In this document: piece by piece, positions 15,617-57,057 of the stretch
How the letters are laid out: each line of letters begins with the position of its first letter
How positions within the stretch are numbered: the stretch's first letter is position 1
Assembly: GCA_006503535.1 (NCBI GenBank)
Contig: QYRS01000016.1
Span: forward strand, 310,001-374,000
Length of the DNA stretch: 64,000 bases
Reading direction: 5' to 3'
DNA from: Arthrinium phaeospermum
Taxonomy: Eukaryota; Ascomycota; Sordariomycetes; Amphisphaeriales; Apiosporaceae
Notes under the pieces: model-generated
Told to the model about the DNA's origin: nothing
Database searches by the model: none
Seen by the model: the letters and a program-made list of their open reading frames with translations, nothing else
Position numbers and translations under genes: made by a program

Positions 15617-17633
15617 TTAGGCTCCGCCCGAAACAGCCACCTTCTGTGCGCCGACGGGGAAGAGCCTCTCCTTCTTCATAAGCAGCGCGCAGATGGCCGC
15701 GATGGCTCCAGCGGCCGTGCTGAGGATGTAAACCCGGCTCATGGCTCTCGTAATGGCCGCGACCGCCTCCTGCTGGACGGAGGGGCTCAGGCGCGAGAAG
15801 AGGGCACTGCGAGTGCCGGTGATGGCACTCCGAATCTCCTGGTCGGAGAGCCCCATGCCGCCAAGCACCTCACGAAGATTTCGAAAGGACAAGCTCTGGA
15901 AGATCTGCCCCCCGATCAGCAAGCTCAAGGTCTGGAACCCGAGCTGCGAGAGGTTCTGTATCGAGATGACCCGCTGGAGGTCAAGGCCGTCGCCTGTTTC
16001 GGCCATGATGGTGACGCCCGAGACTGTAAAGCCGAGATTAAACACCAAGCCAGTGCCGGCACCCAAGATGATGCTGTAGCCGTAGACATTTGCGTTGGCG
16101 GTCTCCGGGTTGACAGTGAACATTGCCGCACTGCCAACTGTCATAAGAACCCCGCCGATCAGGTACAGGATCCAGCTGGAACGGTTAGCTCTCTTGTTCA
16201 TGGAGATCAAGACGGGGATGCGCTTACTAGTAGTTGACCCTCGGCAGGAGGGCGCCAGACAGCATATTCAGTGTCGCAAGGAAGCAGATGTAAGGGAGAA
16301 GGCGCACCGCAGCCATGAGCTCCGAGTCGCCGAGGGTGAAGGCGAAGTAGAGAGGGATGTAGTAGACCGGCACGTAGATGTTGGTGGCCGCCATGGCGGT
16401 GACAATGTTGAGCAGAACCTGCGTCTTGTTCAGGAGAATGCGGCCTGGGGGGAACATGCGTGCTTCCGGCGTCGTCAGGAAGGCGAAGTGCTGCTGGGCG
16501 AACACCATGGCGAACAGGGCTCCGGTCACGACGAAGACGGCGATCGTGCGTCCGTCGTTCCAGCCCCAGGTCGAGCCCGCGAAGGTCAGGACCAAGGTGA
16601 GCGACACGGCTGCCCCGGTGCTGCCAACGAAGCCAACCCAGTCCATGGCCTTGAGCTTTTTGGCGACGGGGCTGTCTGCTGCTGCACCATTGGGGGTGAC
16701 GGGTGGAAGGTAAAATAAGTATATCGGGGCACAGATAGCGGCAACTACACTGTCCAGAGGTCTAAGTATACAAGTACTTGCCTGAGATTGCTCCCGAGTA
16801 TTAATGATCCACTTACAGGTTGATGTAGAAGGCCCAACGCCACGTCGCAGAAGACGTGGCGAAAGCACCCCCAACTACAGGGCCCAAGACGGCTCCTGAT
16901 CCCCATACCACCCCAATGCCCGAGATATAGCGGCCTCTTTCTTGCTCAGTGGTGCAGAGGGAAAAGTAATTCAGGATACTGCGCAGATAGATGTGTCAGT
17001 GAACCATCGAACCGGAACCTGATGCAGGGAAGATCAGTCGAGTGTTTACCCGAGAAAGATGCCAGTGCCACCGACGCCGGCAATGGCTCTGCCGATGATC
17101 AAGGCGTTCATGCCGGGCGCCGCGCCACAGAGTGCAGAGGCGCCCTCGAAGAGAACGATGCTGCCGATGAACATGAATTTCAAGTCGAAGACGGAATATA
17201 GGGCGGCACTTCACAGTGTCCAGTTGGTCAGTCTCGCTTTGTTGGTTGATGAACGGGGAGGCAACGTTGGAGAGAAACCAACTTACCCAGGCAAGATGGC
17301 GCATACGGAGCCGAGAGGAAAGGCAGTACCGATCCATGTGAGCTTCTCGACTTGACCAAACTGCTCGATAATGGCGGACTGGACGTCGGCAGCGATGGTA
17401 CCGTCGAGGCCGTAGATGAGGGCGCCCACGTAGAGGGATGCCACGGCAGCAGCCCATTTCCACCCCTGCACCGCTCTTGGGCTTGGCCCGGGGCCATCCT
17501 CGGCTTGCGGGAAAGACTCCATATCAGGCGGCGTCGGCGGATCGGGTCTGTCTGGGGTTTCGTTGGTGCTTCCACGGGAGCGAGGCTCGGGGGTTTTCTC
17601 GAACCCCAGCGCGCTCCCTTCGAAAAACGGCAT
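15617..17633 (-). CDS. MFS transporter, DHA2 (14-TM) type; MFS-1
   Basis: A drug:H+ antiporter-like exporter in the plasma membrane. Five exons keep frame: 17633-17287, 17208-17050, 16978-16817, about 16749-16228 and 16175-15617, giving about 582 residues. The acceptor near 16749 has a close alternative five bases on. Motifs include GALIYGLDGTIAADVQSAI in TM1, the A-type loop LYSVFDLKFMFIGSIVLFE, IIGRAIAGVGGTGIF in TM4, and GPVVGGAFATSSATWRWAFY, which corresponds to motif C and TM5. Length and motif pattern fit the 14-TM group linked to secondary-metabolite export. It shares a 461-nt divergent promoter with the dual zinc-finger regulator, and that promoter carries two matching palindromes. 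Export of the cluster product is an inference. Confidence 0.9.
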
Positions 17634-17853
17634 GACGATCCACGCATAATTGACCCAAATATGAGGGGCAAACGACAGAAGACGAGAGAATGTGAGGAAC
17701 GGTACGAAGGCAATGGATTAGCAACATCGGGTGCAGAACACGAACAGAGCCATCAAGTGTGCCGCGTCTTAATATAAGTGGTGGTCACCGGGATGGCCAT
17801 CAATCGCCGCAGGTGTAAGTGTAAGTGACCCACACTACTAAGTACTTTTGCTT

Positions 17854-17868
17854 CGGCCAGTTTGGCCG
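17854..17868. promoter_or_regulatory. Palindromic CGG-N9-CCG site
   Basis: CGGCCAGTTTGGCCG, one base from perfect symmetry. CGG/CCG triplets at fixed spacing are the classical target of Zn2Cys6 dimers. Confidence 0.5.
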
Positions 17869-17937
17869 TCGACCAACTTGGCCGCTTGTGGAGAGTCCTG
17901 AAAGAATGGGGCCCGGCACGGATACGACGAATTTCGT

Positions 17938-18094: not shown

Positions 18095-20069
18095 ATGCAT
18101 GCACTGTCCGAGTCCTCCCCGCAGGCCTCGTCGCCTTTACCACTGCGGTTTTGCGGCACCTGCCACAAGCCATTCTCCAAGGGTTGGTTCACAGTTCTTT
18201 CTTTGACCATGTCTCGTCATTTGCCTCCTTCCGTATCTATGATTTCTTATTGCGGCGACTCGGCAGGGCGGGATTGGTGATTGCCCCTCATGTCGCTTTT
18301 CAAGAAAATCTGGGAGGCTCCCTTGCTGTAGGCTTGGACAACAGTTGACATGTGGCCAATAGAATCGTCGTACCGTCGCCATGTACTCTACTGCCGCCGC
18401 GCCCAAAATCGCCCCAAAACTCGTGTCAGAGCTTGCCGGGCTTGCAACCTGGCCAAGGTGAAATGCACCCTGCAGCCCAAATGCGTGCGATGCAGTAACA
18501 AGGGCCTCGAATGCGTTTACGACACGACTGGTGCACCTGCGGCTCCTGCACAAGACGGACGCGTCGCCAACGAAGGACTGCCACGATATGGCGCCCAGGA
18601 TTGCTCTCCGTCTGACTCGTTCAGTGGCGATGGTATGACCGAGACGCTGGATGGTTGGTCTGAGTTCGACGCGGCACCCGACATTACGGAAGAATCCCCA
18701 AACGCCATGGACTGGGGCGCATTCGAGCTCACGGCGCATCAACCCTTTCCTGAAATAGCCAAAGATTTCCTACCCAAATTGCTCCAACCAGGCACGCAGG
18801 TTGTGTCTCACAATGGGGAATTGGTAGATGATAGTCCTTACGGACTCGTCGCCACTTGCGATCCCCAGCGTCTCTTGGCCGACGGTTCTGCCTCGCCTCC
18901 ACGAGCTGTCGTCCTCCAGGATGAGGAGCCGAGTCCCGCCCTCGTCCGGCCGACCCATCTCCCCGAGCCGCCAAACCCCAGCTTCTTGTCGCAAATCGCC
19001 ATGTCGGACCCCGTCGCGAACTGCACTGCCCACGCCGTCTTGCGGATGCTGCGCGCCCTCCCCCACATGATGCTGCGCCGAGAGACTTTCCCCCCTTTCA
19101 TTCACGCGCACTGGCATCGCGCCGCCCGTCCGAATGCCGCAGAGCCGGCCCTGCCCACGCCGCTGGCGAGCTGCATGGGCATCGCACAGGTCTTTGCGTC
19201 GCCGAATGTCGAGACGAGGCCGTTCCTTTGGCGCTCGATTCAGACGGAGCAGCGATCCGCGGCCGAAAGGGTTGAACCCCCATCTCGTCTCCGCTGCTTT
19301 CTGGTCCCTTCACTAACCTCATGGTGTAATAATAGTCCAAACAACGGCTGCTCTCGAAGGAGGAGCTGCTCGCGACGATACAAGCTCAGCTCGTCTACAT
19401 CATGATGCGGGTAATGGACCAGTCTCCGGCCATACCGGGCATGAGCCATGAGATGCTTGTTGTCTACCAGGTAATTACGGCATCTCATACATATCAGGAA
19501 TTTCTGACTGATTGCTTTCCAGAACCTCTGTGAGAGCTTCAAGGACTTGTGCAACCAGCCGTTCTTCCAGGACGAGAGGCAACATCCAAGCTCCTGCTGG
19601 GAAGACTGGATTTTTTCCGAGTCGAGACGAAGGTAATAACTCCATTGTCTGAGGATCACACACGGCATTTCCCCGTTTCATGTCGGCCCGGCTAATGTTG
19701 CGACCTAGGACTGTGGTCGTCTGGCTTCTCATCGCTCACTTGGTTCAAGTCAAGATTGGCGTGCGATGCGACTCGTTCGATGGGTTTCGGGAGGTTCCCC
19801 TTCCCGCCGGCAGGTCGCTTTGGGAGACGAGGACCAGGCAGGGTTGGCAAGTGGAATACGAGTTGTACATGAGAATGCCGCGTGGAGGGCTCGAGCTATT
19901 CGGTGACCTCATTGACGCCTGCAGGCAGGGCGATGTCGGTTCAAACCAGCTGAAGCTAGACGCTTGGAATGCGACGGTCGATGGTCTCGGGATCTTGCTT
20001 AATCTGGCGGCATCTATTTTCCAGGGAACATGTTCCTTGATGAATGTCTTCCTAACTACTTGTATATGA
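18095..20069 (+). CDS. Dual C2HC / Zn2Cys6 zinc-finger transcription factor
   Basis: Probable nuclear regulator, 533 residues. Exons are 18095-18182, 18363-19270, 19336-19470, 19523-19632 and 19709-20069; all keep frame. Joining exons 1 and 2 rebuilds a finger, Cys20-x2-Cys23-x12-His36-x3-Cys40 (FCGTCHKPFSKE, then SSYRRHVLYC), directly followed by a Zn2Cys6 cluster with Cys54, 57, 64, 70, 73 and 80. Without exon 1 the first finger would lose two ligands, which is why I chose the start at 18095. The C-terminal half has helical motifs of fungal regulators (QRLLSKEELLATIQAQLVYI). The donor of intron 1 (GTTGGT) and of intron 2 (GTTGAA) are weak, so these joins are inferred from the reading frame and family pattern. 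It ends 23 nt from the stop of the convergent citrate synthase. Confidence 0.85.
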
Positions 20070-20092
20070 AGTGCAACCAAGCTATATCACAA

Positions 20093-21585
20093 CTATTCCG
20101 TCCGGTTCAGCTTGCCCGTGTACTTTTGCCCCGGACGCCATATGCTCGGCGGACCCTCCATGGCCTCCTTCCAATGCGCCATGAAGCCCTGGGTCCTCGA
20201 CACGATGGAGATGGGCAGGATGAACTCGGGCGGGAAGCCGAGGGCCTTGTAGGCGAAGGCGGCGAACAGGTCGGCGTTGGGCCGCAGCTTGCGCGAGACG
20301 AAGTACTCGTCCTCGGCGGCGGCGCGGTCGAGGGCGAAGGCCACCTGCAGCAGCGGGTCCCTGGCCACCTCGTCCGAGAGCTCGGCCAGGATGTCGCTGA
20401 TGTAGGTGAAGCGGGGGTCGGTGACGCGGTAGACGCGGTGGCCGTAGCCGTAGAGGCGCTCCTTGCCGGCTTTGACGCGCGCGATCTTGGCCGGCACGTC
20501 GGCGACGGTGCCGACCTCGGCGATGTTCTTGTAGGCGACCTCGATGGCGCCGCCGTGAAGGGGCCCGTAGCCGGCCGAGATGGCCGAGACGAGGCTCGAG
20601 ATGGCGTCGGGCAGGGCCGAGGCCGTCTGCAGCAGCGCCGCCGTCGAGCACGTCATCTCGTGGTCCGCCACCGTCGCCCAGAGCCGCTCGAAGGCGTCGA
20701 CGTAGCGCGGGTTGGGCCGCCCCGTGCCCGCGTCCACCTGGCCCGTCATGAGCAGGAAGTTCTCGACGTACGACAGGTCCCGGCGCGGCGGCGTGAAGGC
20801 ACGGCCGCTGTGGTGGCAGTAGGCGGCGGCCGTGATCATGGACAGGCTGGACATGACCCGGATGACCTGCTCGTCGACGTTGGCGGGCTGGCCCATGTAG
20901 AGGTTCTTGGCCACGTGGGCCGGGACGGCGCCCATGTCGCTGGATTGCAGGGCGCTGAGGCCTGCCACCATCATGCCCAGTATCGAACCATTTTTCCTAC
21001 AACATAACACGATTAGCCCACTCTACGCTGTTTCTGCATGGTTGGTGATGGCCTACGGGAACGACCGGATGACGTTGAACACGCTGTCATCTATCAGCGG
21101 GACGTTGTTGAGACGTTCCTGGTAGATCCGGGCCTCCTCGGTGGACGGCCAATCTCCCCAGATGAGCAGGTGAGAGACGTCGACAAACTTCTTCTTCCCT
21201 ATGATGTCGTGGATGGAGTAACCCCTGTACTGAATCGTACCCTCGAGGCCATCACTGGTTTGTGTCAGCACCGGCCTGTAAGTATACCACCTCGAAGGAC
21301 TTACATGTAAGTGATCTTGCTCTCGCTCACCAAGGTGTTGGAGTAGCCCGGATCGTAGACTCGGAGGCCTTGCTCGTTTTGGAACTCCGGGTTTTCTGCA
21401 TCCTTGGGGGCCTTCAGCGCCTTGAGGTCGCTTGCATTGATGGAGTTCTGGTCGATCCTAATGGCATGGTATTGTCCAGTTCGGCTGTCAATGACATGTA
21501 GAACATCGCCCAGATCAAGACGAGTCTGGCTGTCCTTGCTGGAGCTGATGGTCCCGTTGGACTGAGTCGTCACGGTCGAAGTCAT
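20093..21585 (-). CDS. Citrate synthase homologue, probable alkylcitrate synthase
   Basis: Predicted to condense a FAS-derived acyl-CoA with oxaloacetate to an alkylcitrate. Exons 21585-21305, 21254-21057 and 20996-20093 give 462 residues. Catalytic features of citrate synthases are visible: His274 (DHEMTCST), His309 (GPLHGGA), His348 (YGYGHRVYR) and Asp404 (RPNADLF). The N-terminus is Ser/Thr-rich with few basic residues and does not look like a mitochondrial transit peptide, unlike the primary metabolic enzyme; a cytosolic place beside FAS would fit. It is divergent from FAS alpha across a 631-nt promoter. That context, plus the dehydratase and decarboxylase further on, argues against a simple methylcitrate-cycle role: no methylisocitrate lyase is nearby. 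Acyl chain preference cannot be read from sequence. Confidence 0.92.
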
Positions 21586-22216: not shown

Positions 22217-25200
22217 ATGACCCTCATCAAACACGCCGCCGCTCCTGCGGAAGATGGCAGAAAGTCGGAACAACAAATAGCCTATGACCTACTAATAGAG
22301 CTTCTAACGTGAGTCGAAATCATATTTCTCTCTCTACTCATCGAGGCCCGCGTATTGGCTAACAACTTCCACTTGCGCACTTTAGATATCAGTTTAGCTT
22401 TCCGGTACAATGGTACGTACTTATCTTGGAAAGACTCCTCAGCCACTTGATGCACCGTTTTTAACAAGCCTTTGAAGGATCAATACACAGAAGGAACTCT
22501 TGACTTCAGAGCAGAATGTGCGGCGCATAGTGGAGATAGGACCGGCCAATGTCTTGGCGTCCATGGCCAAAAAGTCGGCCAAGGCCCTCGTCATGGAGCA
22601 AGACATCGCGCGGTCTATCACGCGCGAGTTCCTCAACGTCAATAACCCCGACGACATTCGTAAGATATACTACGAGTACGACGAGAGCACGCCAGCGGCA
22701 GACGAAAAGGCAGCCTCGTCTTCGCCGGCAGCGCAAGCACCGGCCCCGGCCGCAGTGGCAGCGCCTGCGCCTGCTGCCGTTGTCCTTGCCGTCACCCCTT
22801 CTGGTGGCACTGCACCAGTGCTGAGCGCCTCAGGGGCCAGTGTTGACAAGGATCTCTCGCCCACTGACATCATTATCACATTAGTGGCCCAGAAACTTCG
22901 GCGCGCGTTTGATGAAGTGCCTGTCAGCGAATCGATCCAGGGCCTGTCTGGCGGTGAGTTTTATCCGACACTTGCAACATTTTGATCCTGCACAGCTGAT
23001 CCCATGAACAAAAACAGGCAAATCCACGCTCCAGAACGAGCTTATTGGAGACCTCGCCGCCGAGTTTGGAGATCTGCCGGACGGCAGTGAGAGCACGGCC
23101 ATAGGAGCCCTCGGCGAGAAGCTCGTTTCCGGCTTCGCCAAGAAGCTGGGTGCGTCGTCCAAGCGTCTGGTCGAGCGATTCATCTCCTCCAAGATGCCCG
23201 CGGGCTTTGGCCAGACCGAGATGATGACGTACCTGGAATCCCGCTGGGGCCTCGGTCCCAGCAGCCGAATCGCCCTTGCATGCTTCTGCGTCACCATAGA
23301 GCCTCCCTCCCGGCTTGCCAGCGTCAGCCAGGCTCACGTCTTTTTGGACTCGGCCGTCCCGCGATACGCCAAGCACGCGGGGATTACCCTGCCCGCAGCG
23401 TCGGCTAGTGGGGTAGGACAAGCAGTACAGAACGCCGTGGTGCAGGTGGACAATGCTAGTCTGGAGACACTTAAGACGGAGCAGAACGCCGTGCTGAAGA
23501 AACAACTCCAAGTTCTGGCAGACCATCTTGGCATTGAACTCAACCCGGATGCAACAGAAGGTGGCAAATCGGCGAGCAGTGACCTTCAGAAGAAGCTGGA
23601 CCGGCTCCACCGAGAACTGGACGAGGAATTCCTCAGCGGGGTGCAGGGTGTCTTCGACGCCCAAAAGGAGCGACGGTACTCGTCATGGTGGAACTGGGTA
23701 CGCGAAGACGCCGCGCGGGTCCTGCTGGAAGCCCAGGAGGGCGGCAGCATCAGACAGTCTCTATCCAAGGAGCGACTACAGGCCTTCGCCAACAGGTGGA
23801 CTGCGGAGCTAGAGCACATGCTTCGCTACTGCGCCGAGTCGGGACAGGCGAACAAGGGCGTGGCCGAGGAGCTCCTCCGGCTCAAGCCCGCAAACAATAC
23901 GGACGCGCAGTCGAAGCAGCAGCAGCCACCTCCCGTGTTCCGCTACTTCGCGCCGGCCATGGCGCCGCACACTGCGGTCGACGAAGCGGGCGCAATCCAA
24001 TACAGCGAGCAGGCGCGTCGGAGCCAGGCGACCTACTTCGACGCCGTCAGCGCCACGCGCCGCGGCGGCGGCTCCTGCAGCAGCTACGTGCACTGCCTCC
24101 GCCGCGGCGGCCAGTCGTCGTCGGCGTGGCAGCACGACGCCGAGCTCACGCGGGTGTACCTCGAGGCGCTCCGGCTCGGCACCACGTCGGGTCTCAGCTA
24201 CGCGGGCAAGACGGCGCTCGTCACGGGCGCCGGTGCGGGCTCCATCGGCCTCGAGGTGGTCCGCGGCCTCCTGGCGGGCGGCGCGCGCGTCATCATGACG
24301 ACGAGTCGGGCACCCGCCGCGGCCGGGCCCGCCATGGCGCGGCTGTACAAGGAGGCCGGCGCGCGAGGCTCCGAGTTAGTGCTGCTGCCCTTCAATGCGG
24401 CGAGCAAGCGGGACGTCGAGGAGCTCGTCGCCCACGTGTACCACGACGGTAAGGGCGGGCTGGGGGCCGACTTGGACTTCGTGATCCCCTTCGCCGCCAT
24501 CCCCGAGCCCGGCCGCGAGGTGGACGGTATCGACGCGCGGTCCGAGGTCGCGCACCGGGCTATGCTGACCAACGTGCTGCGGCTGATGGGCTGCATCAAG
24601 CAGCACAAGGAGAAGCGCGGCTACACCGGCCGGCCGACGACGGTGGTGCTACCTCTCTCGCCCAACCACGGCGACTTCGGCGGCGACGGGCTGTACTCGG
24701 AGTCCAAGGTCGGGCTCGAGACGCTGTTCAACCGCTACCGCTCGGAGCGCTGGTCCGACTACCTGTCCGTCGTCGGGGCCGTCATCGGCTGGACGCGCGG
24801 CACGGGCCTCATGAGCGCCAACAACATCGTCGCCGAGGGCATCGAGAAGCTGGGCGTCATGACCTTCACCGCCGCCGAGATGGCCTTCAACATCCTCGCC
24901 CTCCTCGCGCCGTCGGTCGTGCAGCACGCGGACACGGAGCCCATTTACGCCGACCTGAGCGGGGGGCTGATCGGCTTCCCGAATCTCAAGGAAGAGATCA
25001 CGGCCATCCGACAGGACATTACGGGCAGGAGGCGGGTGCGACAAGCTATTGCCGCCGAGAGGGAGAGACAGGAAGCAGTAGTTCGGGGCCCGAGCCCGGG
25101 AGTGGCTGCTTCTCGGTCATCAACGGCCGAGATCCGGGTCACCACGCAGAAGAAGGAGGCCGCCACGGCTCCGCAGCCGCCAAAGCGCTCCAACATCACC

Positions 25201-27414
25201 CAGGGGTTCCCGAAGCTGTCCTCTCACCAGACCATGACGGCGGGCCTCGCCAACCTGACCGGCATGGTCGACCTGAGTCGTACCGTCGTCATCGTCGGCT
25301 TTTCCGAGTTGGGGCCCTGGGGCTCCTCCCGCACGCGCTGGGAGATGGAGAGCCGTGGGAAGCTGTCACTCGACGGCCTGACGGAGATGGCGTGGATGAT
25401 GGGCCTCATCAATCACCACGATGGCCTCATCGACGGGAAACCCTACGTCGGCTGGCTGGATGTGGAGTCGGGCCAGCCGGTGGAAGAGTGCGACTTGGCC
25501 GCCCGCTACGAGGAGCACATCATGCGCCACTCGGGCGTCCGGACCATCGAGCCCGAGGGTCTCGACGGCTACGACCCGGCCAAGAAAGAGCTTCTGCACG
25601 AGGTGGTTCTCGACCACGACCTGCCGGCCTTTGAGACCTCGGCGACCAGCGCGCAGGCCTTCAAGCTCCGTCACGGCGACAAGGTCAAGACTTTCCCATC
25701 GGGGGGCGACGCCGACGGCAACTGGACCGTCGTGGTGCGGGCGGGCGCGACGTTCCACCTGCCCAAGGCGACGGGCGGGCACAACCCGACGGCGGCGCAG
25801 CTGCCGCGGGGCTGGGACGCGGCGACGTACGGGGTGCCGGCCGACGTGATGGCGCAGGTGGACCCGGTGACGCTGTACGTGCTGTGCTGCGCGAGCGAGG
25901 CGCTGCTGAGCGCGGGGCTGGCGGACCCCCACGAGCTGTACGGCCACGTGCACGCCTCCGAGGTGGCCAACTGCGTCGGCGCGGGCGCGGGCGCGCTCAA
26001 GGCCGCCCGGCAGATGTACCGGGCGCGGCACCGCGACGAGCCCGTCGCCGGCGACGTGCTGCAGGAGACCTTCCTCAACGCCATGGGCGCCTGGGCCAAC
26101 ATGCTGCTGCTCGGCGCCGCGGGCCCGCTGCGCACCCCGACGGGCACCTGCGCCACCGCCGTCGAGTCGCTCGACAGCGCCTGCGACCTGATTCGGGCCC
26201 GCCGCGCCCGCGTCGCCCTCGTCGGCGGCACCGACGACCTGCGCGAGGAGGTCGCCAACGAGTTCACCAGCATGCGCGCCACCGTCGACGGCGCCCGAGA
26301 CGCCGAGGCCCGCGGCCGGCTCCCGTCCGAGGCCTCGCGGCCCACCACCACCTCGCGCGCGGGCTTCGTCGAGAGCGCGGGGTGCGGCGTCCAGCTCGTC
26401 GCGAGCGCGGAGTTGGCCCTCGAGATGGGCTTGCCCATCTACGGCGTCGTCGCCTACACACAGATGGCCGCCGACGGCGTGGGCCGCTCTGTCCCGGCAC
26501 CCGGTAGGGGCATCCTCACGGCGGCGCGCGAGGCCCCCGCCTCCGCCGCGGCTGACCCCCTCGTTAGCACGCGGCCGCTGCTGCTGGACGTGGCGTACCG
26601 CCGGTCGCGCCTGGAGCACGAGGTGGCCACCATCGAGCACTGGCGTCTGTCGCAGCTAGCGGGCGCGTCCCAGACCACGTGTGATGCATCGGCGGCACAC
26701 GGGCAGGTGATCGAGGCGGCCGCGGCCTGCTCCAAGGCGGACGCGCAGTGGATGTGGAACGGCGAGCACCTGCGGCAGCAGCTGGACCCGACCATGGCGC
26801 CCCTCCGGGCGGCGCTGGCCGTCTGGGGTCTCGGCGTCGACGACGTGGGCGTCGCGTCCTTCCACGGCACCTCAACGAAAGCCAACGACCTGAACGAGAG
26901 CGCCGTCGTGCACCGGCAGATGGCGCACCTGGGCCGCTCCGCCGGCAACCCGCTCCTGGTGGTCTGCCAGAAGGCGCTGACGGGCCACCCCAAGGGCGCC
27001 GCGGGGGCCTGGATGCTCAACGGGTGCCTCCAGGTGCTCGAGTCGGGCGTCGTGCCCGGCAACCGCAACGCCGACGACGTCGACGCGGCGCTCCGCGCGT
27101 TCCCGCACCTCCTGTACCCGTCCGAGACGGTCGAGGTTGGTCTCATCAAGGCCTTTATGCTGACGTCGTTCGGGTTCGGGCAGAAGGGGGGCATCGTGAT
27201 CGGGGTCACGCCGCGGGCGCTTTACGGGGCGCTGCCGGCGGCGCAGTACGAAGCGTATCGTGCCAAGGTGGAGAAGCGCCGCCGTCGGGCGGACCGCGCG
27301 TTCCAGTTGGCCATGATGACCAATTCGGTCTTTAAGGCCAAGGATCAATCGGCTTGGACCCAGGCGGGCATACTGGAGGAGGATTTCTTTCTCGACCCTA
27401 CCGCGAGGATATAA
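22217..27414 (+). CDS. Fungal fatty acid synthase alpha subunit, metabolite-type (no PPT domain)
   Basis: Carries ACP, ketoreductase and ketosynthase of a dedicated type I fungal FAS. Exons 22217-22308, 22386-22412, 22478-22953 and 23018-27414 give 1,663 residues. The spliced N-terminus reads ELLTYQFSFPVQWINTQKEL, the conserved alpha-subunit opening, which fixes the small exon 2. An Ala/Pro linker leads to the ACP, whose phosphopantetheine serine is Ser201 (GGKSTLQNE). The ketoreductase has GAGAGSIG near residue 600 and Tyr757/Lys761 (GLYSESKVGLE). The ketosynthase triad is Cys1243 (GTCATAVESLDSA), His1481 (SFHGTSTKAND) and His1522 (LTGHPKGAAGAW). The protein stops soon after the ketosynthase, so the C-terminal phosphopantetheinyl transferase of primary FAS (about 1,850-1,890 residues) is absent, as in the FAS of aflatoxin-type clusters. 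Partner: the beta subunit at 50565-57057. Confidence 0.96.
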
Positions 27415-46526: not shown

Positions 46527-48119
46527 ATGGGGATCGCCAAGTACGCTGATCTGAGTGACATGCACTCCAAGGCGGATGCGGATCCGGCCCTCGACGAGAA
46601 TGCTGGCACTACTAGTGCGCTCTGCGAATGGGCGATGGGATTGAAAGTCTCTGACATCCCCAAACCCATCTTGGAGCGGGTCAAGCATCTTATCCTGGAT
46701 GGCATCGCTTGCGCGCTCGTGGGCGGCCACGTGCCCTGGTCCGAGCAGTGCGCCGATGCCGTCTTGGACTACGAGCCTCCTGGATACTGCACCGTCATCG
46801 GTTACAACGAGGTGAGTTGGATCACCGTCATCATGGAAACATGGAGACACGACTAACGTTGGTCCGCTCTACAGGCTCTCAGCCCTCTCGCGGCAGCCAT
46901 CTTGAACGGCGCCTTCATCCAGGCCGCCGAACTGGACGACTACCACAGCGCCGCCCCGCTGCACTCGGCGGCGGTGGTGGTCCCGGCCCTGCTCGCGGCC
47001 GCACAATTCCTCAGCACCGGCAACGGGCGGCGCCTAGACGAGCGGCGGCCGGTGTCGGGGCTAGACTTCCTGCTGTCGGCCGTGGTCGGGTTCGAGACGG
47101 GCCCGCGGGCGGGCGCGGCGCTCGGCGGCGGCGCGCTGCTGGTGCGCGGGTGGCACTCGGGCGCCATCTTCGGCTGCCCCGCCGCCGCCGTGGCCAGCGC
47201 GCGGCTGCTGGGCCTACCCGCGGACCGGGCCGAGTCGGCCGTGGGCATCGCGTGCACGCAGGCGGGCGGGCTCATGTCGGCGACGTACGAGGGCATGGTG
47301 AAGCGGGTGCAGCACGCCTTCGCGGCGCGCAACGGGCTCTTCGGCGCCCTGCTCGCCCGCAACGGCTACGTCGGCATCCGCAAGGTGCTCGAGCGCCGCT
47401 ACGGCGGCTTCCTCGCCATGTTCAGCCAGGGCAGCAGTAGCGGCGCCGCGCCCCCCTACGACGTCCGCCGCGTCGTCGCCGGGCTCGGAAGCGACTGGGA
47501 GATCTGGAACATCCGCGTCAAGCTGCACGCCTGCGTCGGCGGCTGCCACGGCCAGATCGAGGCCCTCGCCCGGCTGCAGCGCGACCACCCCGACAGGTTC
47601 GAGGTAGACCGACTCAAACATATCGCCAAGATCACGGTGGGCCTGTCCGGCCCCATCTTTGCGCACGACGGCTGGGAGCCCCATGAGCGGCCCTTGGCGA
47701 CGACGGGGGCGCAGATGAACGCGGCTTACATCGGGGCGGTGCAGCTCGTCGACGGCCAGGTGCTGCTGGAGCAGTTTGCCGACAAGAACCTGGACCGGGA
47801 CGAGGTGTGGGATCTGGTCCACAAGACGAGCTGTTACCACGACGCTCATTTCGACCAACCCCATTTCGCCTGCGGTGCACGGATTACTGTCGAGTTTGAC
47901 GATGGAGTCAAGCTGGAGACGGTGCTGGATCAGCCCCGGGGGTATAATCCCCCGATCACGGATGAAGAGATCCAGGCCAAGTATCGAAAGCTGGCCACTT
48001 CTGCCATCGATAGGCAGCGCTTGGAAAGAATTGAGCAGCTGGTTCTCGACTTGGAGAATATCGAGGACATGTCAGAGCTGTTTGAGCTGCTCGCGCCACC
48101 CACTAGAAGAGTGCTTTAG
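46527..48119 (+). CDS. cis-Aconitate decarboxylase (CadA)-like, probable alkylaconitate decarboxylase
   Basis: MmgE/PrpD-fold enzyme, 509 residues, exons 46527-46811 and 46875-48119. It belongs to the aconitate-decarboxylase branch: the opening EICHWA-type motif appears as SALCEWAMGLKVSDIPKPIL, followed by LILDGIACALVGGHVPWSE and the active-site strand ELDDYHSAAPLHSA (residues 114-127). GWHSGAIFG (His189) and MVKRVQHAFAARNG (Lys238, His242) line up with the catalytic His/Lys region of fungal CadA and animal ACOD1. The C-terminal part (DKNLDRDEVWDLV, ARITVEFDDG, EIQAKYRKLA) is also family-like. In itaconate producers this enzyme turns cis-aconitate into itaconate. Here, beside citrate synthase, dehydratase and FAS genes, a longer alkylaconitate giving an alkylitaconate with an exo-methylene is the likely reaction (inference). 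Confidence 0.93.
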
Positions 48120-49908: not shown

Positions 49909-50564
49909 CTTTCCTGTAGTTGGCTCAAGAGTGCTTGATCGCAAATGAATGCTGTCAGGGGAACCTATCTGGCCTCACTAAATCATGATCGTTATTGTCT
50001 AGACCTTCTTGGGGTCATTCGTCCTGTCCCATCGGTTGAGCCGCTAATAGTCGCACAGTTAGACAAGCAACCCGGGTCCGGTCATCGGCACAGTAAGAGC
50101 CGAGCGAGGCGGCGCTCGGCACCCGGCGCCCGGACTGAATCGCTTGCTAAGGCACCAGTACGGCGGCCCTGGACGCGGCCTCGGATCTTCCACAATTTGA
50201 TGCAGAGCTCTCAAAATGAAACGGCTTACTCGCCGGTGCCGTTGAACAGCCCCGGAGACGCATTCACATTGGCGCCTGCCGAGAACGGGATGACCGCGCG
50301 CGGCAGAAGTCCGGTCCTCGACACGCCAAGTCATACATTCATTTCGCCATCGACTAAGTAATTATGTAGTTGTATTGGTGGGGTTAATAGATCAGAGTTG
50401 GCCGTCATATCTCGATAGAAGTCACCGATTAGCCTAGATGGAAACTGCCCCGATCTCAGCTGTAATCAACTTGTACAGCCGTCCGACTCGCCTTGGGAAA
50501 AACTGGTGATGCACTAATTATACGCTTCATCACCAAAATAGTCCCTATATTGTCCTTTATCATT
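49909..50564. promoter_or_regulatory. Divergent promoter dehydratase / FAS beta
   Basis: Contains GCTCGGCACCC at 50114-50124, identical to half of the TauD-2/decarboxylase palindrome. CGG-N5-CCG occurs twice (50033-50043, 50286-50296). No CGG-N9-CCG was found. Confidence 0.5.
50114..50124 (+). promoter_or_regulatory. Shared 11-bp element GCTCGGCACCC
   Basis: Exact copy of 46247-46257. Here it forms CTCGG-CAC-CCG rather than the full palindrome. Confidence 0.35.
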
Positions 50565-53500
50565 ATGGCTTGTTCAGATGAAGCCACTTCATCCTTTGCC
50601 GAAGTGCATCAAGGCCCCAAAATATTCGACACACCCGGCCTATTCACCCCTGTTTTGCAAGGGAACCTGACAGTGTTCCACATCAGCCACCACTCAGTCC
50701 ATGTTGAATTACAGCTGGCCCCTTCAGACGTCTCACAGCTCAGCGGCTATCTAAACACCTTTCTCGCGTCGCTGGAGCAGACGGGAGATGGCAGTGATGG
50801 AAACGCACCTTCATCAGATGTAGGCCTGGCCTTCAGGTTTCTGAACCATCTTCTGGCTAACCGATGCACGCCCGAAACACTTGCACGCCTTTTCTATGCT
50901 GTACGATCGGACCTCATGCAGGACAAGGAGGTGCACTGCGTTTTGCACGAGCTGAATGAGAGCAGTGCAACACGGAGATTGATTATACGCACATATATGC
51001 ACCTCACATCGATGCTGTCCTGTCCCCTGCCACTAGCCCCCAGCGCCCTGCTGACGGGGGCCAAGGACAAGAAGAACCGGATATTGGTAGCCTTTGGAGG
51101 CCAGAGCTCGGCCAACCCCGACTGCGTCGAGGACCTGGCCGCGCTGTACTCGCTCTACCGGCCGTTCCTCGAGCCGCTAGTGACATCGCTCAGCGACGTC
51201 CTCGGCGCGCTCTGCCGCCACCAGGACACGAGGGCCTTGTATCTGGGCCGCGAAATCGACCTGCCGGCCTGGCTGGAGGACCCCGCGAGCCGGCCCAGCC
51301 GCAGCTTCCTCGCCAGCGCGGCCGTCAGCTTCCCCATGATCGGCATCAGCGGGCTGCTCCACTACTGCGTCCTCTGCCAGATGCTGGGCAAGACCCCGGG
51401 GGACCTGGGCCAGAGTCTCGCGGGCGCCACGGGCCATTCCCAGGGCATCGTGCTCGCGGCCGTCGCCGCCAAGGCGCACGACTGGGAGTCCTTCTTCGTC
51501 GAGGCCAAGTGGGCGGTCCAGCTCCTGTTCTGGATCGGGTTCGAGAGCCAGATGGCGGCCCCGCCGTCCCTCGTCACGCCGGCCATCGTCCGGGACAGCG
51601 TGGAGGGCGGAGAGGGCGTGCCTTCGCACATGCTGTTGGTGCGCGGGCTCGGGAAGGAGGCTTTGGAGGCCGCCATCGCGGCTGGGAACCAGCACCTTCC
51701 CGTCGACGAACGCCTCTATCTGTCGCTGATCAACAGCCCGACCGATCATGTGGTTGCTGGGCCACCACGGAGCCTCCGGGGCCTGGTTTTGAGACTGCGC
51801 GAGGTCCGTGCCAGAGACGGGCTGGATCAGAGCCGCATCCCTTATAGCAGCAGGAGGCCCGTCATTGATTTGACCTTCTTGCCTGTCAATGCGCCCTTCC
51901 ACACACCCTACCTCCAGGAGGCAGCGGGTCGCATAGCTGCCAGAATGTCCAGATCCTGGCCCGTGGCGGCCAAGATTAAGAGTCTGCAGATTCCCGTTTT
52001 CGACACTGAGAATGGGCGGGACTGGCGTGCGTCGCACGAGACCGAGGCAGATGTAGTACAGCTGCTGATTGATGCCGTGACGACCAGAGTGGTGGACTGG
52101 CCAAATACACTCCAAGTCCATAGTAGTGGAGGAGTGCCTTTCACGCATGTCATAACTCTGGGGGTCGGGCGATTTGCGGGCATGGTCTACCAGAACGTCG
52201 ATGGCCGGGGAGTACGCGTCATCGACGGGACGAGGCTCGACGCCGCCGACCTCAACACCATAGGAGACAAGGTGGAGATATTTGCGCCGGCTGCTACAGC
52301 CATGAGTATCGATGCGCGATCATGGGAAGAGCAGTATAGGCCCCGTCTCACCCGGTCCGCCGACGGCAGCCGCTATAACGTCACGACTCGGCTGAGCCAG
52401 GTCCTCAAAGCACCTCCCATCATCGTAGCGGGCATGACCCCGACGACGGTGCCGTGGGACTTTGTGGCGTCCGTCACCCAGGCCGGCTACCACATCGAGC
52501 TCGCGGGCGGGGGCTACCACAGCCCGGCGGCCATGACGGCGGCCCTCGAGAAGCTCGCGGACAGCATCCCGGCGGCCCGGAGCATCACGTGCAACCTGAT
52601 CTACGTCGACCCCAAGGCGATCGGGTACCAAATCCCCCTGATCCGCCAGCTCGTCGCCCGCGGCGTCCCCATCCGGGGCCTCACCATCGGGGCGGGCGTC
52701 CCGTCCCCCGAGGTGGCGGCGCAGTACATCGAGACGCTGGGGCTCGAGCACATCGCCTTCAAGCCCGGGTCCGCGCCGGCCATCCGGGACGTGGCCAAGA
52801 TCGCCCGGGCGCGACCCGGGTTCCCCGTCATACTCCAGTGGACGGGCGGCCGCGGCGGCGGCCACCACTCGTGCGAGGACTTCCACCAGCCGCTCCTGGA
52901 GACGTACGGCGAGATACGGCGCTGCCCCAACCTCTATCTCGTCGTGGGCAGTGGCTTTGGCGACGGCGCCGGCATGTTGCCCTATCTGACCGGGGCCTGG
53001 TCGGTGCCGTTTGACCGGCCGGCCATGCCGTGCGACGGCATCCTGCTCGGCAGCCGGATGATGGTGGCCACCGACGCACATACATCGCCCGCGGTCAAGA
53101 AGCTCCTGCTCCGGGCGCCGGGCGTCAACGATGCACAGTGGGAAGAGTCCTACCGGAGCAGCGCCGACGCGGCAGGGGGCGTCTTGACCGTCACCTCGGA
53201 GATGGGACAGCCCATCCACAAGGTCGCCACGCGCGGCGTGCGGCTCTGGAAGGACATGGACGACACCGTCTTCAGCCTCCCCAAGTCGGAGCGCAAGCCG
53301 GCGCTGCTGAAGCGCAAGCAGGAGATCATCCGCCGGCTCAACGCCGACTTCGCCAAGCCTTGGTTTGGAGAGAGCGCCGAGGGCCGGCCCGTCGACCTCG
53401 AGGACATGACCTACGCCGAGGTGCTGTCGCGGCTGGTGAAGCTCATGTACGTGCGCCACCAGAAGCGGTGGATCGACCCGTCGTACCACGACCTCGTGGC

Positions 53501-56500
53501 CGAGTTTGCCACTCGCGCCCTCGAAAGGCTCGGCTGCTCCGACGCTTTGGAGTTGTCCACCTTGTTGGACGAACCGGAGGGGTTGGTCGCCGCCGTGGCC
53601 AGAGTCTGCCCTGGCGTCGCGGAGCAGCTCCTGCATCCCGAGGACATCCGCCTCTTCGTGCAGTCTTGCAAGAAACGGGGTCGGAAGCCCGTCAATTTCG
53701 TCGTGGCCTTCGACGACGACTTCGAGCACTGGTTCAAGAAGGATTCTCTCTGGCAGTCGGAAGACTTGGAGGCCGTCATCGACCAGGACCCGGAGCGGGT
53801 GTGCATCCTGCAGAGCCCGGTGTCGGTGCGCTACTCCACCCGGGATGACCAGTCGTCCAAAGAAATCCTGGATGAGATCCATGGTGATCTTGCCGTTTTG
53901 ATGATGCGCGATTCCGAAATGGCCAGAAGTGCCGCCACACCATCGCCCGAGGAGACCCTGGACCGCCCCGCACATGCCATACCCGAAGGTATAGTTGTGG
54001 ATGATATCGAAGGTTGCACTGCGTTCCGTCCCGTGCCCGGTCAAGACCTCCCCAGTCCGGAGGCGTGGATGGGATGCCTGAAGTACCACACCTGCGCGGC
54101 GATAGTTGCCCTCGCCCAGCAGGAGACCGTGTTCGAGGTCGCCGCGGGGCGCCGCCGAGAGAACCCGTTCCGTCACATATTAGCAGCCCGCCACGGCTAC
54201 ACCCTGGTTCTTGGCCCGGGATCGGAACAGGCCGCCCTCCGGGACAATGCGACAGAGCAGACGGTTCTTCGCGTCCAGGCGGACCAGGAATTGTCATCGT
54301 CATCGGGACGACGGCTGCATGTGACGTTCATGCACAGCGACGCCGTGCCGGCGGGACCGGCTATCCTGGCCCTGGAGTGGGAGTTCGACGAGCACGTTAT
54401 GGAGCTTATCGACGCGACACCTGGTCGGGACAAGCGTGTCCAGGACTTCTATGCGCACATGTGGCTTGACCAGAAGGGCGCAAGGGTCGGCAGAATAACG
54501 GATAGGTTTGTAGCTGCTGATGAGTTCAAGCTTACCCGGGAATTGCAGCGCGTCCTCTGTTCGACCGTTTCCCACGCCCTCTCCGGTAGCCCCGGTACTG
54601 TCCAAGCAGAAGTCCTGCCTCTGGAGGCTGCTGTCATCGCAGCATGGGATGTGTTGATGCGTCCGCTGCTGGTCGGCGAGCTGGGGGGCGACCTGCTGCG
54701 CCTGGTTCATCAGTCCATCAGCATTGAGTACGTCTCGGGCGCCTCGACTCTGCGCGTGGACGAGTCCGTTACCACCGAGTCCTCGGTCCGGGCCATCACC
54801 GTCCAGTCTTCTGGCAAAGCCGTTACCGTTGAGGCCAAATTGCGGCGCCAGGGCCGCCACATCGCCACGGTGACATCCGAGTTCTTCATCAAGGGCAAGT
54901 TCTCCGACGACCGGAATACGTTCCGCCATAGGCAGGAGCCCACAATGGAGCTCGAAGTCGGCTCCAAGATAGACGAGGCCGTCCTGCGCGACTGCCCTTG
55001 GGTCCACCTCGACGACCCTTTGATGCCTCTAGTCGGCGAGACTCTGGTATTTGAGGTGCAAACCCACAGCAAGTGGACCAGCAGCAGTCAGACCAACGCC
55101 GCTCCGAGCCTCGAGGTCCGGGGCACCATCGACCACCTACTCTGGAACGGCAGCCGGCGCACGGTGGGCTCCGTCCGCTTCGACGCGCCCGCCAGCCAGG
55201 GGAACCCGGTCACCGACTTCCTGGAGCGCAAGGGCAAGAGGCGAGGCGGCAAGGTCCTGCTCCCAAGCCCGGGGTGGGCGGCCGAGTCGCAGGTCGCCGT
55301 GGTGGCCCCCGGCAACTCCCAGCTCTACGCCGAGCTGTCGGGCGACTGCAACCCCATCCACCTGTCGCCCGTCTTCGCCCACCTGGCGGGGCTACCGGAG
55401 GGCCCCATCATGCACGGCATGTACACCGCGGCCGTCTGCCGGCAGGTGGTCGAGGACCTGGCGGTCGCGGGGGAGCCGCACCGCCTGCGGCGCTTCGAGG
55501 CCGCCTTTGTCGGCATGGTCCGGGCCGGCGACCGGCTCGTCGTGGGGCTGTCGCACGTGGCCATGCACGGCGGCCGCATGGTGCTCGAGGTCGTCGCCCG
55601 GCTGGAGGGGTCCGGGGAGACGGTGCTGCGCGGCGAGGCTGAGGTCGATCAGCCCGCGACGGCGTACCTGTTCACCGGCCAGGGCAGCCAGTCGCCCGGG
55701 ATGGGCATGGCGCTCTATGAGACGAGTCCGGCGGCCCGGGCCCTTTACGACGAGATGGACAGCTATTTCATCGACACATATGGTAAGTACCCCATGGTCC
55801 TGGTTCTAACCAGACTGGGAGATTAAAAGTACTTGAGATGCTAACGACCCGGTCAAAATCACTCAGGCTGGTCCATCCTCCGGGTCATTCGGGAGAACCC
55901 AAAGGAGCTCACCATCCACTTCCGAGGCCGCCAGGGCCAGCGGATCCTCGGCAACTACCTCGACATGAAGACGGAGGTGCTGGAAAGCAACGGGACGCGC
56001 CACCTGATGCCCATCATCCCCGGGCTCGGCCGCCACTCGACCTCGCACACCTTCGCCGACCCCCGCGGCCTGCTGCAGTCGACGCTCTTTGCGCAGCCGG
56101 CCATCATCCTGGTGGAGCGGGCGACCTTTGCGGACATGCGCGAGCGCGGGCTCGTCCAGGAGGGCGCCGTCTTCGCCGGCCACTCCCTGGGCGAGTACGG
56201 CGCGCTCTCGTCCCTGACCGACTTCGTCAGCCTCCGGGACATGCTCAGCATCGCCATCTACCGCGGGCTGACGATGCAGCTGGCCATCCCGCGCGACCTG
56301 GAGGGCCATACGGGCTACTCCATGGTGGCGGCAAATCCAAGTCGGGTCGGAAAACGTAAGGACGTCGTCACTCTCTTCTATGATCACTGGCTAACTTTGG
56401 ATTATTGGATGCCGGAACAGACTTCGACGACAAGGCACTGAGACACATTGTCCGTCATATCCACCAAGAGAGCGGGGAGCTTCTGGAAATCGTCAACTTC

Positions 56501-57057
56501 AACGTCGAGGGCGATCAATACGTCTGTGCCGGTCACGTAAGTTTTCTGCCACCCCAACCGCCCCGCGATGTATCAGACGGAGCGTAGGAGCTTTTAGTAC
56601 TGACCTCTGACTGACGGGCCACCAGGTGCGGAACCTCCACTGCCTTGGCGAGATCCTGGACGCGGCGGCGGCGCAGCACGTCATGAAGCCCGCTTGGATC
56701 CAGGAGTTTGTCGATGCGGCGCATCCGGGCGACACGGCCCTGGGGCAGGCGCTCGCAGATAACATAAGACGAGCGAGGGGGCTGCCGCTCGGTACAACAC
56801 TACAACGGGGACGGGCCACGATCCCGCTCGCCGGCATCGACGTGCCGTTCCACTCGAGCCGGCTGCAGCCCGGCGTGCCCGCCATGCGCGACTTCCTGCG
56901 CGCCCGCGTCCGGCCCGAGGGCGTGCGCCCCGACCGGCTCGTCGGCCGCTATATACCCAACGTCGTGGGCCGGCCGTTTTCCCTCGGCGGGGCTTTCATT
57001 GAAGAGGCGGCTGAGATTACGCAGAGCCCGGTTTTGAATAGGCTGGTGTGTGGGTGA
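50565..57057 (+). CDS. Fungal fatty acid synthase beta subunit, metabolite-type
   Basis: Supplies acetyl transfer, enoyl reduction, dehydration and malonyl/palmitoyl transfer to the FAS; 2,084 residues. Exons 50565-55782, 55867-56355, 56421-56536 and 56626-57057. I start at the ATG at 50565 (MACSDEATSS), the first ATG of the frame. The acetyltransferase has Ser292 in GATGHSQGIVLAA. The flavin enoyl reductase, about residues 610-845, reads PPIIVAGMTPTTVPWDFVA, TIGAGVPS and QWTGGRGGGHHSCEDFH. The hot-dog dehydratase end has LSGDCNPIHLSP and IMHGMYTA near residues 1590-1625. The transferase domain starts FTGQGSQSPGMGM and holds Ser1846 (FAGHSLGEYGAL); its late part, VRNLHCLGEILD, requires the last exon. 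All domains expected of a beta subunit are present and intact, close to the usual 2,050 residues. It lies 23 kb from FAS alpha, at the right end of the cluster. Confidence 0.96.

What the first reader, a model, noticed from the sequence alone, without database searches (positions are those of the whole stretch)
15617..57057. Biosynthetic cluster for an alkylcitrate-derived lactone (sporothriolide-type logic)
Seen: FAS alpha and beta, a citrate synthase, a PrpD-type dehydratase, a CadA-type decarboxylase, two TauD dioxygenases and an SMP-30 lactonase-like protein, with transporters and regulators, in 41 kb. Known: this set of functions makes alkylitaconate-derived gamma-lactones and furofurandiones such as sporothriolide. 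Inferred: acyl-CoA plus oxaloacetate gives an alkylcitrate, then an alkylaconitate, an alkylitaconate, hydroxylation and lactone formation. The gene order, extra transporters, Dabb and MDR genes may mark a variant with a different chain length or oxidation pattern.
Basis: partly seen in the sequence, partly recalled or inferred. Interest (0 to 1): 0.9.

Follow-up and report, generated by a model that had tools for sequence, protein, structure and literature searches.

The report
Fungal alkylitaconate-lactone gene cluster
A 41-kb stretch of an Apiospora-like fungal genome carries a gene set for joining a fatty acid to a citric-acid-cycle acid and probably oxidising it to an antifungal-type lactone, related to the known sporothriolide gene set but apparently with a different pair of oxygen-adding enzymes.

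Summary
Window 15617-57057 encodes FAS alpha and beta, an alkylcitrate-synthase-type citrate synthase (ACS), a PrpD-type dehydratase, a cis-aconitate-decarboxylase-type PrpD protein, two TauD oxygenases, an SMP-30 lactonase-like protein, an MDR reductase, a Dabb protein, three MFS transporters and two Zn2Cys6 regulators. The host is taken as an Apiospora near A. marii (ACS 97%).

Best reading: acyl-CoA plus oxaloacetate gives alkylcitrate, alkylaconitate, alkylitaconate, then an oxidised exo-methylene lactone. The core resembles sporothriolide (spo): ACS 85%, decarboxylase 69% to Hypomontagnella monticulosa. The tailoring seems different: TauD1 and TauD2 form two clades with Pestalotiopsis, Seiridium, Cercophora and some Aspergillus, TauD2 also with A. 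avenaceus, source of avenaciolide; none of the 120 best hits named Hypomontagnella or A. flavus falls in them. An ACS residue beside the active-site His motif is Gly here and in H. monticulosa, but Thr or Leu in rows thought to make C8 products, which hints at a longer chain (inference).

An Apiospora alkylcitrate cluster is already in print for A. arundinis. Verdict: new variant of a known kind; product unproven.

The parts
15617..17522 (-). MFS_A, DHA2/EmrB-like transporter (5-exon model, 519 aa); possible left edge
   Evidence: TIGR00711 2.3e-22, below its cut-off; MFS_1
18332..19636 (+). TF1, Zn2Cys6 regulator (zinc cluster at 18434-18514); ends approximate
   Evidence: Zn_clus 22.0 bits, cut-off 21
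20093..21585 (-). ACS, alkylcitrate-synthase-type citrate synthase, 460 aa, 3 exons; ends -NRTE, no SKL-type peroxisomal signal
22476..27414 (+). dedicated FAS alpha; stops after the KS domain, no ACPS/PPT domain seen; N-terminal exon(s) not fixed
27850..30300 (-). TF2, Zn2Cys6 (30195-30278, pattern match) plus Fungal_trans regulator
31488..32519 (-). MDR reductase, quinone-oxidoreductase/acrylyl-CoA-reductase-like, 343 aa
   Evidence: (below cut-offs)
33974..34413 (-). Dabb (stress-responsive A/B barrel) protein, about 100 aa
35988..38069 (+). MFS_B, TRI12/DHA2-like transporter, 561 aa model
38301..39569 (-). SMP-30/gluconolactonase-like protein; frame changes at about 39,078, or an intron at 39047-39108
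40185..41366 (+). TauD1, Fe(II)/2-oxoglutarate oxygenase, 351 aa, HxD and distal His motifs present
42305..43945 (+). MFS_C, MFS transporter; 5' end approximate
44589..45906 (-). TauD2, Fe(II)/2-oxoglutarate oxygenase, 373 aa hand-joined model, 97.6% to A. marii P0121, HxD and distal His motifs present
46527..48119 (+). PrpD-family alkylaconitate decarboxylase (CadA/HadA/SpoK type), 509 aa
48347..49908 (-). PrpD-type (2-methylcitrate dehydratase-like) alkylcitrate dehydratase, 500 aa hand-joined model
   Evidence: (TIGR02330 483.5 bits, cut-off 458)
50565..57057 (+). dedicated FAS beta
35663..35680 (-). CTCGGCA-N8-CCG site upstream of MFS_B (pattern chosen after the fact)
41850..41867 (-). CTCGGCA-N8-CCG site upstream of MFS_C (pattern chosen after the fact)
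46248..46265 (+). CTCGGCA-N8-CCG site between TauD2 and decarboxylase (pattern chosen after the fact)
50115..50132 (+). CTCGGCA-N8-CCG site between dehydratase and FAS beta (pattern chosen after the fact)

Best explanation
It is a secondary-metabolite cluster of an Apiospora fungus that makes an oxidised alkylitaconate, most likely an exo-methylene gamma-lactone or bis-lactone. A dedicated FAS (no PPT domain of its own seen, so activated in trans) makes a medium-chain acyl-CoA. The ACS joins its alpha carbon to oxaloacetate. The PrpD-type enzyme dehydrates the alkylcitrate and the CadA-type enzyme decarboxylates it to an alkylitaconate. TauD1 and TauD2 each insert one oxygen into the chain carbons next to the head group. 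The SMP-30 protein closes, opens or detoxifies lactones. MFS proteins export; the MDR enzyme may reduce the reactive exo-methylene (self-protection). Shown by sequence: the gene set, the subfamily placement, the metal-binding motifs. Inferred: substrate, order of steps, positions of oxidation, chain length (longer than C8 favoured), product.
For: Gene set. ACS clade and identities. Decarboxylase: 7-row clade (SH-aLRT 100) apart from the spo-type one, 51% to a row named cis-aconitate decarboxylase, PDB cis-aconitate decarboxylase 3e-24 against 1.8e-5 for 2-methylcitrate dehydratase. Pestalotiopsis fici locus tags 09699 (TauD1), 09701 (TauD2), 09702 (decarboxylase), 09705 (ACS): the first three in the window's order. 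TauD1 and TauD2 clades SH-aLRT 100 each, motifs present. FAS alpha lacks the ACPS domain that the genome's primary FAS alpha has. Hexylitaconic acids are reported from A. arundinis with such a cluster (passages) and from A. montagnei and Arthrinium sp. (passages). In H. monticulosa the pathway is decanoyl-CoA, alkylcitrate, dehydration, decarboxylation, hydroxylation, lactonisation (passages).
Against: No chemistry or expression data for this strain. Only one lactonase-like gene was found, where oryzine has two and spo has 'lactonases', and its reading frame is doubtful. The TauD pair is not the spo one as far as tested. The clusters of A. lentulus, A. tanneri and S. cardinale with these TauDs have more distant ACS (62%, 65%, 67%), and the decarboxylases of A. 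arundinis and A. kogelbergensis sit in the window's clade although no TauD1/2 row of theirs was listed, so core and tailoring genes do not share one simple history.
Confidence: 0.75

Rival explanations
1. A plain sporothriolide-type (type A) cluster: the C3 unit stays on the alpha carbon and the chain is oxidised at C3 and C4, giving sporothriolide or a homologue; the TauD pair merely replaces the spo oxygenase.
For: ACS 85% to the H. monticulosa enzyme and the same Gly beside the active-site motif; decarboxylase 69%.
Against: No Hypomontagnella row in the TauD1 or TauD2 clade among the 120 best hits; decarboxylase in a clade separate from the H. monticulosa one, and Seiridium unicorne carries both kinds.
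Confidence: 0.35
2. A type B (avenaciolide/ethisolide-like) cluster: one of the two oxygenases moves the acrylate unit from the alpha to the beta carbon while oxidising, and the second hydroxylates the gamma carbon.
For: TauD2 and decarboxylase relatives of Aspergillus avenaceus share a contig length of 239,788 bases, and that species is a source of avenaciolide; A. lentulus, of a series in which avenaciolides are listed, has TauD1, TauD2 and ACS rows with one longest-contig length.
Against: No ACS and no TauD1 of A. avenaceus was in the lists seen. The passages name A. hiratsukae, A. neoglaber and A. stramenius for avenaciolide, not A. lentulus. The A. lentulus decarboxylase tag (000592) is far from its ACS and TauD2 tags (008616, 008614). 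The link is by species, not by a proven cluster, and I know of no enzyme of this family that does such a shift.
Confidence: 0.2
3. The product stops at an acyclic or singly hydroxylated alkylitaconate (hexylitaconic or piliformic acid type).
For: Hexylitaconic acids are the alkylitaconates reported from the genus in the passages seen.
Against: Piliformic-type clusters lack dioxygenase and lactonase genes while this one has both; other Apiospora ACS rows (A. hydei, rasikravindrae, kogelbergensis) carry Thr where this one has Gly, and no row named for A. arundinis, kogelbergensis or hydei fell in the TauD1/2 clades.
Confidence: 0.2
4. A degraded or silent cluster.
For: Frame change in the SMP-30 gene.
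Against: ACS, TauD1, TauD2, dehydratase, decarboxylase and the long FAS exons are open; the lactonase spot can be an intron or an assembly indel; A. marii orthologues of ACS, TauD2 and decarboxylase are 96-98% identical.
Confidence: 0.1

Closest known systems
Sporothriolide (spo) cluster, Hypomontagnella monticulosa
   Same: FAS pair, ACS (85%), dehydratase, decarboxylase (69%; a Seiridium homologue is named SpoK), dioxygenase and lactonase functions
   Different: oxygenase pair not orthologous as far as the best 120 hits show; one lactonase-like gene seen, not several; MDR and Dabb genes here, not compared with spo because the spo paper was not held
Oryzine (ory) cluster, Aspergillus oryzae
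   Same: FAS pair, citrate synthase, 2-methylcitrate dehydratase, aconitate decarboxylase, TauD, lactonase, transporters
   Different: ory table has one TauD, two lactonases and an acyl-CoA ligase, no MDR or Dabb named; ACS of the A. tamarii row (taken as OryE-like) 72%, with Leu at the variable site
akc/hadA alkylcitric acid genes, Aspergillus niger, and the akc-like cluster of Apiospora arundinis
   Same: FAS, citrate synthase, dehydratase, regulator, decarboxylase; in A. arundinis the decarboxylase is inside the cluster, products hexylitaconic acids (passages)
   Different: no TauD pair in the passages seen; no row named A. arundinis in the TauD1/2 clades
Unnamed cluster of Pestalotiopsis fici (PFICI_09699-09705)
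   Same: TauD1 87%, TauD2 81%, decarboxylase 84%, ACS 82%, three in the same order
   Different: product unknown to me; ACS has Ser, not Gly, at the variable site
ctr (cinatrin) cluster, Hypoxylaceae
   Same: FAS pair plus ACS plus 2OG oxygenase
   Different: ctr lists an FMO and no dehydratase or decarboxylase

Membership tests
FAS-dependent alkylcitrate clusters | dedicated FAS alpha and beta beside an ACS | tested here: met
   one of three FAS alpha loci of the genome, 47% to the primary one over 1,202 residues, next to the ACS
FAS-dependent alkylcitrate clusters | ACS groups with secondary-metabolism ACS, not primary CS | tested here: met
Alkylitaconate branch (spo/ory/hadA) | PrpD-type dehydratase and CadA-type decarboxylase | tested here: met
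Sporothriolide cluster proper | dioxygenase orthologous to that of spo | tested here: inconclusive
   no Hypomontagnella row in the TauD1/2 clades among the 120 best hits; the spo oxygenase sequence itself was not in hand
Sporothriolide cluster proper | more than one lactonase | tested here: inconclusive
   one SMP-30 gene found in the stretch; other lactonase or hydrolase families were not searched for by name
Sporothriolide cluster proper | product sporothriolide (C10 chain, type A) | not testable with these tools
   no chemistry
Piliformic acid type | no dioxygenase and lactonase genes | tested here: not met
   two TauD and one SMP-30 gene present
Maleidride clusters | ketosteroid-isomerase-like dimerising enzyme, PEBP-like protein (recalled), and no aconitate decarboxylase | tested here: not met
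   no such domain in the 57 frames and models scanned with Pfam, not every frame of the window; a decarboxylase is present
ctr (cinatrin) type | FMO present, no dehydratase or decarboxylase listed | tested here: not met
   no FMO domain in the 57 frames and models scanned; dehydratase and decarboxylase present
Avenaciolide (type B) clusters | likeness to a cluster proven for avenaciolide | not testable with these tools
   searches showed none, but three of the six papers of one search were not opened; only species links

The most novel reading that the evidence does not exclude
The TauD1/TauD2 pair marks the type B furofurandione pathway (avenaciolide/ethisolide class), for which I found no gene cluster in the papers seen. 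A 2-oxoglutarate oxygenase would take a hydrogen from the beta carbon of the alkylitaconate; the acrylate group would move from the alpha to the beta carbon through a cyclopropyl radical (as in 2-methyleneglutarate mutase, recalled, which interconverts 3-methylitaconate and 2-methyleneglutarate) and hydroxyl rebound would follow at the alpha carbon. The second oxygenase would hydroxylate the gamma carbon and two lactones would close. By my structure arithmetic that gives the type B skeleton from the ordinary alkylcitrate core.
Probability: 0.2. Interest if true: 0.75.

Novelty: new variant of a known kind. Interest (0 to 1): 0.45.

Why it matters
It separates two modules that can be tested apart: a core that makes alkylitaconates in Xylariales, Aspergillus and other fungi, and exchangeable oxygenase sets that set the lactone. 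It points to gene candidates for the type B furofurandiones, for which no cluster turned up in the papers seen (with three listed papers unopened), and to one ACS position that may set chain length. Within Apiospora, species with and without a TauD1/2 row in the lists offer a direct chemical comparison.

Tried and rejected
Rejected: (1) primary methylcitrate cycle: the genome has its own 2-methylcitrate dehydratase (C4, 42% to the window's) and a methylcitrate-synthase-like gene elsewhere. (2) Maleidride, ctr and piliformic types: see membership test. (3) Chain length from the ACS tree alone: the 21-row subclade that holds the window mixes H. monticulosa with Xylaria longipes, named as having a piliformic-type cluster, so the tree does not decide. 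(4) Chain length from the FAS KS gate: the primary copy reads GSGMGG, the window GAGAGA, the C9 copy GASLGG; the link to yeast G1250/M1251 is recalled and the effect of Ala is unknown, so no claim. (5) Pestalotiopsis 'ficiolides' as the product: macrodiolides by a cited title. (6) Simple avenaciolide membership: a species link is not a cluster.

Weak or against: the promoter patterns were picked after looking at many spacings and k-mers. CGG-N10-CCG has 9 sites in 10,157 intergenic bases of the cluster (mean 2.3 in 300 shuffles, none reached 9; over 16 spacings 2 of 300 shuffles reached 9 somewhere), but N1 also gives 9, and over the whole window there are 37 against 32 expected. The first count (10 of 15 promoters, 1 of 7 controls) double-counts shared promoters. 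CTCGGCA has 7 intergenic sites (mean 1.5), yet among all 7-mers that count is not above the top counts of shuffles (mean 7.7). CTCGGCA-N8-CCG has 4 sites in the window, all intergenic in the cluster, and 160 in the genome against 138 for the reversed pattern; with one mismatch the window is not clearly enriched (12 against 7.8, reached by 10 of 100 shuffles).

Limits: each protein search listed 120 of many hits (6123, 3076, 804), each row is a 90%-identity cluster shown under one name, and many rows have no name, so absence is weak evidence. Locus tags agree with it where I compared them for P. fici, A. kogelbergensis, Parahypoxylon, Chlorociboria and Lecanora (ACS and decarboxylase) and A. 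tanneri (ACS and TauD1), but not for the A. lentulus decarboxylase (tag 000592 against 008616 and 008614). A. marii TauD1 was not in the list, and the A. marii decarboxylase row has another contig length than its ACS row. Rows used in trees: TauD 14 clade rows (two from the window) and 13 of 108 other hits; ACS 62 and 49 rows; decarboxylase 45 rows; fragments and most unnamed rows were dropped before. Trees are 'quick' with SH-aLRT only. Five of the 49 ACS rows did not fit the motif pattern and had no state. That P0026 stands for OryE and P0031 for AkcB is assumed from the species, not tested.

Papers: PMC6162547 (outline and abstract, discussion, tables, first part of results), PMC8403587 (passages and the alkyl citrate section), PMC13178491 (abstract, first part of results); passages only of PMC10565555, PMC7338620, PMC7284703, PMC7070270, PMC4703822, PMC6208954, PMC8998291, PMC4205897, PMC8539907, PMC7426331, PMC10999098, PMC8168325. 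Listing only: PMC7046712, PMC9962652, PMC10512371 (all three hold 'avenaciolide'), PMC8851701. The Tian 2020 spo paper is not held; PMC12369201 could not be read.
Full report
What was checked. The window is G000:C16:310001-374000 of a 48.4-Mb genome in 19 contigs; C16 is 557,374 bases long. ACS, TauD2 and decarboxylase models are 97%, 97.6% and 96% identical to Apiospora marii proteins, so the host is taken as an Apiospora near A. marii. Gene models came from a codon-plus-splice Viterbi script, corrected by hand for TauD2 and the dehydratase. Outside the cluster lie an AA9 oxygenase, an alcohol dehydrogenase and a HET protein on the left, and HET, ribose-5-phosphate isomerase and Ras genes on the right.

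Core enzymes. The ACS is 85% identical to a Hypomontagnella monticulosa citrate synthase (P0003), 72% to the Aspergillus tamarii row (P0026, taken as OryE-like), 68% to the A. luchuensis row (P0031, taken as AkcB-like), and only 36%, 25% and 32% (111 residues) to the genome's peroxisomal, mitochondrial and methylcitrate-synthase-like genes (those names are mine, from sequence features). P0003 and the decarboxylase row P0247 of the same species share a longest-contig length of 1,246,516, and published work places spo only in Hypomontagnella among Hypoxylaceae, so P0003 is read as SpoE. The tree of 62 rows puts the window in a 30-row clade (SH-aLRT 100) with it. The ACS lacks the C-terminal SKL of the peroxisomal copy. 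FAS alpha is one of three in the genome, 47% identical to the primary copy over residues 267-1468 of the 1,468-residue frame, and ends after the KS domain; the primary copy goes on into an ACPS domain (2e-19). No frame between 27,414 and 27,900 shows such a domain by eye.

Two PrpD proteins. The 48347 protein scores 483.5 bits with the 2-methylcitrate dehydratase model TIGR02330 (cut-off 458); the 46527 protein scores 31. The latter's best PDB hits are cis-aconitate decarboxylases (3e-24), with 2-methylcitrate dehydratase at 1.8e-5; a His, a second His and a Lys line up with the PDB enzyme in the printed alignment (that these are catalytic is recalled). It is 51% identical to a row named cis-aconitate decarboxylase and 52% to an A. 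niger row. In a 45-row tree it sits in a 7-row clade (SH-aLRT 100) of Apiospora, Pestalotiopsis, Seiridium and Cercophora, apart from the 11-row clade (94) with H. monticulosa and the Seiridium protein named SpoK; S. unicorne has one of each. The 7-row clade also holds A. arundinis and A. kogelbergensis, of which no TauD1/2 row was seen. Comparing by hand, 22 named ACS rows of 120 share their longest-contig length with a decarboxylase row, one from Lecanora among them.

The oxygenase pair. TauD1 and TauD2 are 44% identical and both keep the HxD and distal His motifs. One search with both and a BLAST of all 120 hits against each leave 12 hits close to one of them: six to TauD1 (69-87%) and six to TauD2 (58-98%). 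The other 108 reach 42-49% to TauD1 and 49-56% to TauD2, so the two A. avenaceus and A. lentulus TauD2 rows (60%, 58%) stand only a little above the general level by identity, but the tree joins them to the TauD2 clade. In that 27-row tree the two sets are clades at SH-aLRT 100. Ten of the 12 share a longest-contig length with an ACS or decarboxylase row. P. fici has all four. A. lentulus has TauD1, TauD2, ACS and decarboxylase rows with one longest-contig length, but its decarboxylase tag does not fit the others. A. tanneri has TauD1, ACS and decarboxylase; A. ellipticus TauD1 and decarboxylase; Cercophora scortea and A. avenaceus TauD2 and decarboxylase; S. cardinale and A. marii TauD2 and ACS (by hand). 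No row named Hypomontagnella, A. oryzae or A. flavus is in either clade; the two Hypomontagnella rows and the A. flavus row put in the tree are of the general kind. P. fici locus tags 09699, 09701, 09702 repeat the window's order TauD1, TauD2, decarboxylase.

Product. Published steps for sporothriolide are decanoyl-CoA, alkylcitrate, dehydration, decarboxylation, hydroxylation, lactonisation (passages). Furofurandiones fall into type A (C3 unit on the alpha carbon: sporothriolide, canadensolide, xylobovide) and type B (on the beta carbon: ethisolide, avenaciolide) (passages). By my own structure arithmetic both need two new carbon-oxygen bonds, which fits two oxygenases. A. avenaceus is a source of avenaciolide and avenaciolides are listed for the series that holds A. 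lentulus, though the species named are others. So the pair may belong to type B. This stays a hypothesis: searches showed no avenaciolide cluster, but three of the six papers of one search were not opened, and no ACS or TauD1 of A. avenaceus was seen.

Chain length. The residue just before Y-G-P-L-H-G-G-A in the ACS is Gly in the window, A. marii, H. monticulosa, S. unicorne, Bombardia and one Nemania copy, Ser in P. fici, Thr in 4 of the 5 Xylaria rows (Val in X. castorea) and in A. hydei, A. rasikravindrae and A. kogelbergensis, and Leu in the A. tamarii, A. luchuensis, Rosellinia and primary peroxisomal enzymes. It changes at least 14 times on the tree of 49 rows, 44 of them scored. Known chain lengths: C10 for sporothriolide; C8 follows by arithmetic for oryzines, hexylaconitic acid and piliformic acid. 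So small residues may go with longer chains; this rests on very few proven points, and A. lentulus, S. cardinale and three more rows differ at the Tyr as well, while A. tanneri of the TauD1 group has Met. The window would then make a C10 or longer chain, unlike the hexylitaconic acids known from the genus.

Regulation. Two Zn2Cys6 regulators lie in the cluster. CGG-N10-CCG and CTCGGCA-N8-CCG sites are more frequent than expected in its intergenic DNA, but the patterns were chosen after the fact and do not stand out over the whole window.

Novelty. The A. arundinis genome paper already reports an akc-like cluster with the decarboxylase inside and hexylitaconic acids C and G as annotated mass-spectrometric features (passages). 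What is added here is the TauD pair and its distribution, the split of decarboxylase lineages, and the ACS site. The SMP-30, MDR and Dabb roles are guesses: the MDR protein resembles quinone and acrylyl-CoA reductases below curated cut-offs, with reticulon-4-interacting protein 1 as best PDB hit.

Noticed in passing
window 39013-39110: In the SMP-30 gene the reading frame of homologous-looking sequence changes by one base at a GGG run; either an intron at 39047-39108, an assembly indel or a broken gene. Described only.
   Followed up: partly
L028 (G000:C9:1114500-1124400): A third FAS alpha whose last frame seen ends after the KS domain, on another contig, with an MFS gene nearby; no citrate-synthase match lies on C9. 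A second FAS-using locus.
   Followed up: partly
L030 (G000:C7:2124500-2128500): A further PrpD-family protein outside the cluster, cis-aconitate-decarboxylase-like by eye.
   Followed up: no
window 2001-4000: A 26% GC stretch in a region otherwise about 50-60% GC, about 12 kb left of the cluster; looks like a mutated-repeat (RIP-like) island.
   Followed up: no
window 7757-8950 and 57430-58863: HET-domain genes lie on either side of the cluster, the right one directly next to FAS beta.
   Followed up: no
window 35663, 41850, 46248, 50115: Four CTCGGCA-N8-CCG sites, all in intergenic DNA of the cluster; candidate binding site of TF1 or TF2, chosen after the fact.
   Followed up: partly
P0347 and P0355 (hits): Aspergillus PrpD-family proteins that also carry a PF01161 (PEBP) domain, a pairing that recalls maleidride enzymes.
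   Followed up: no
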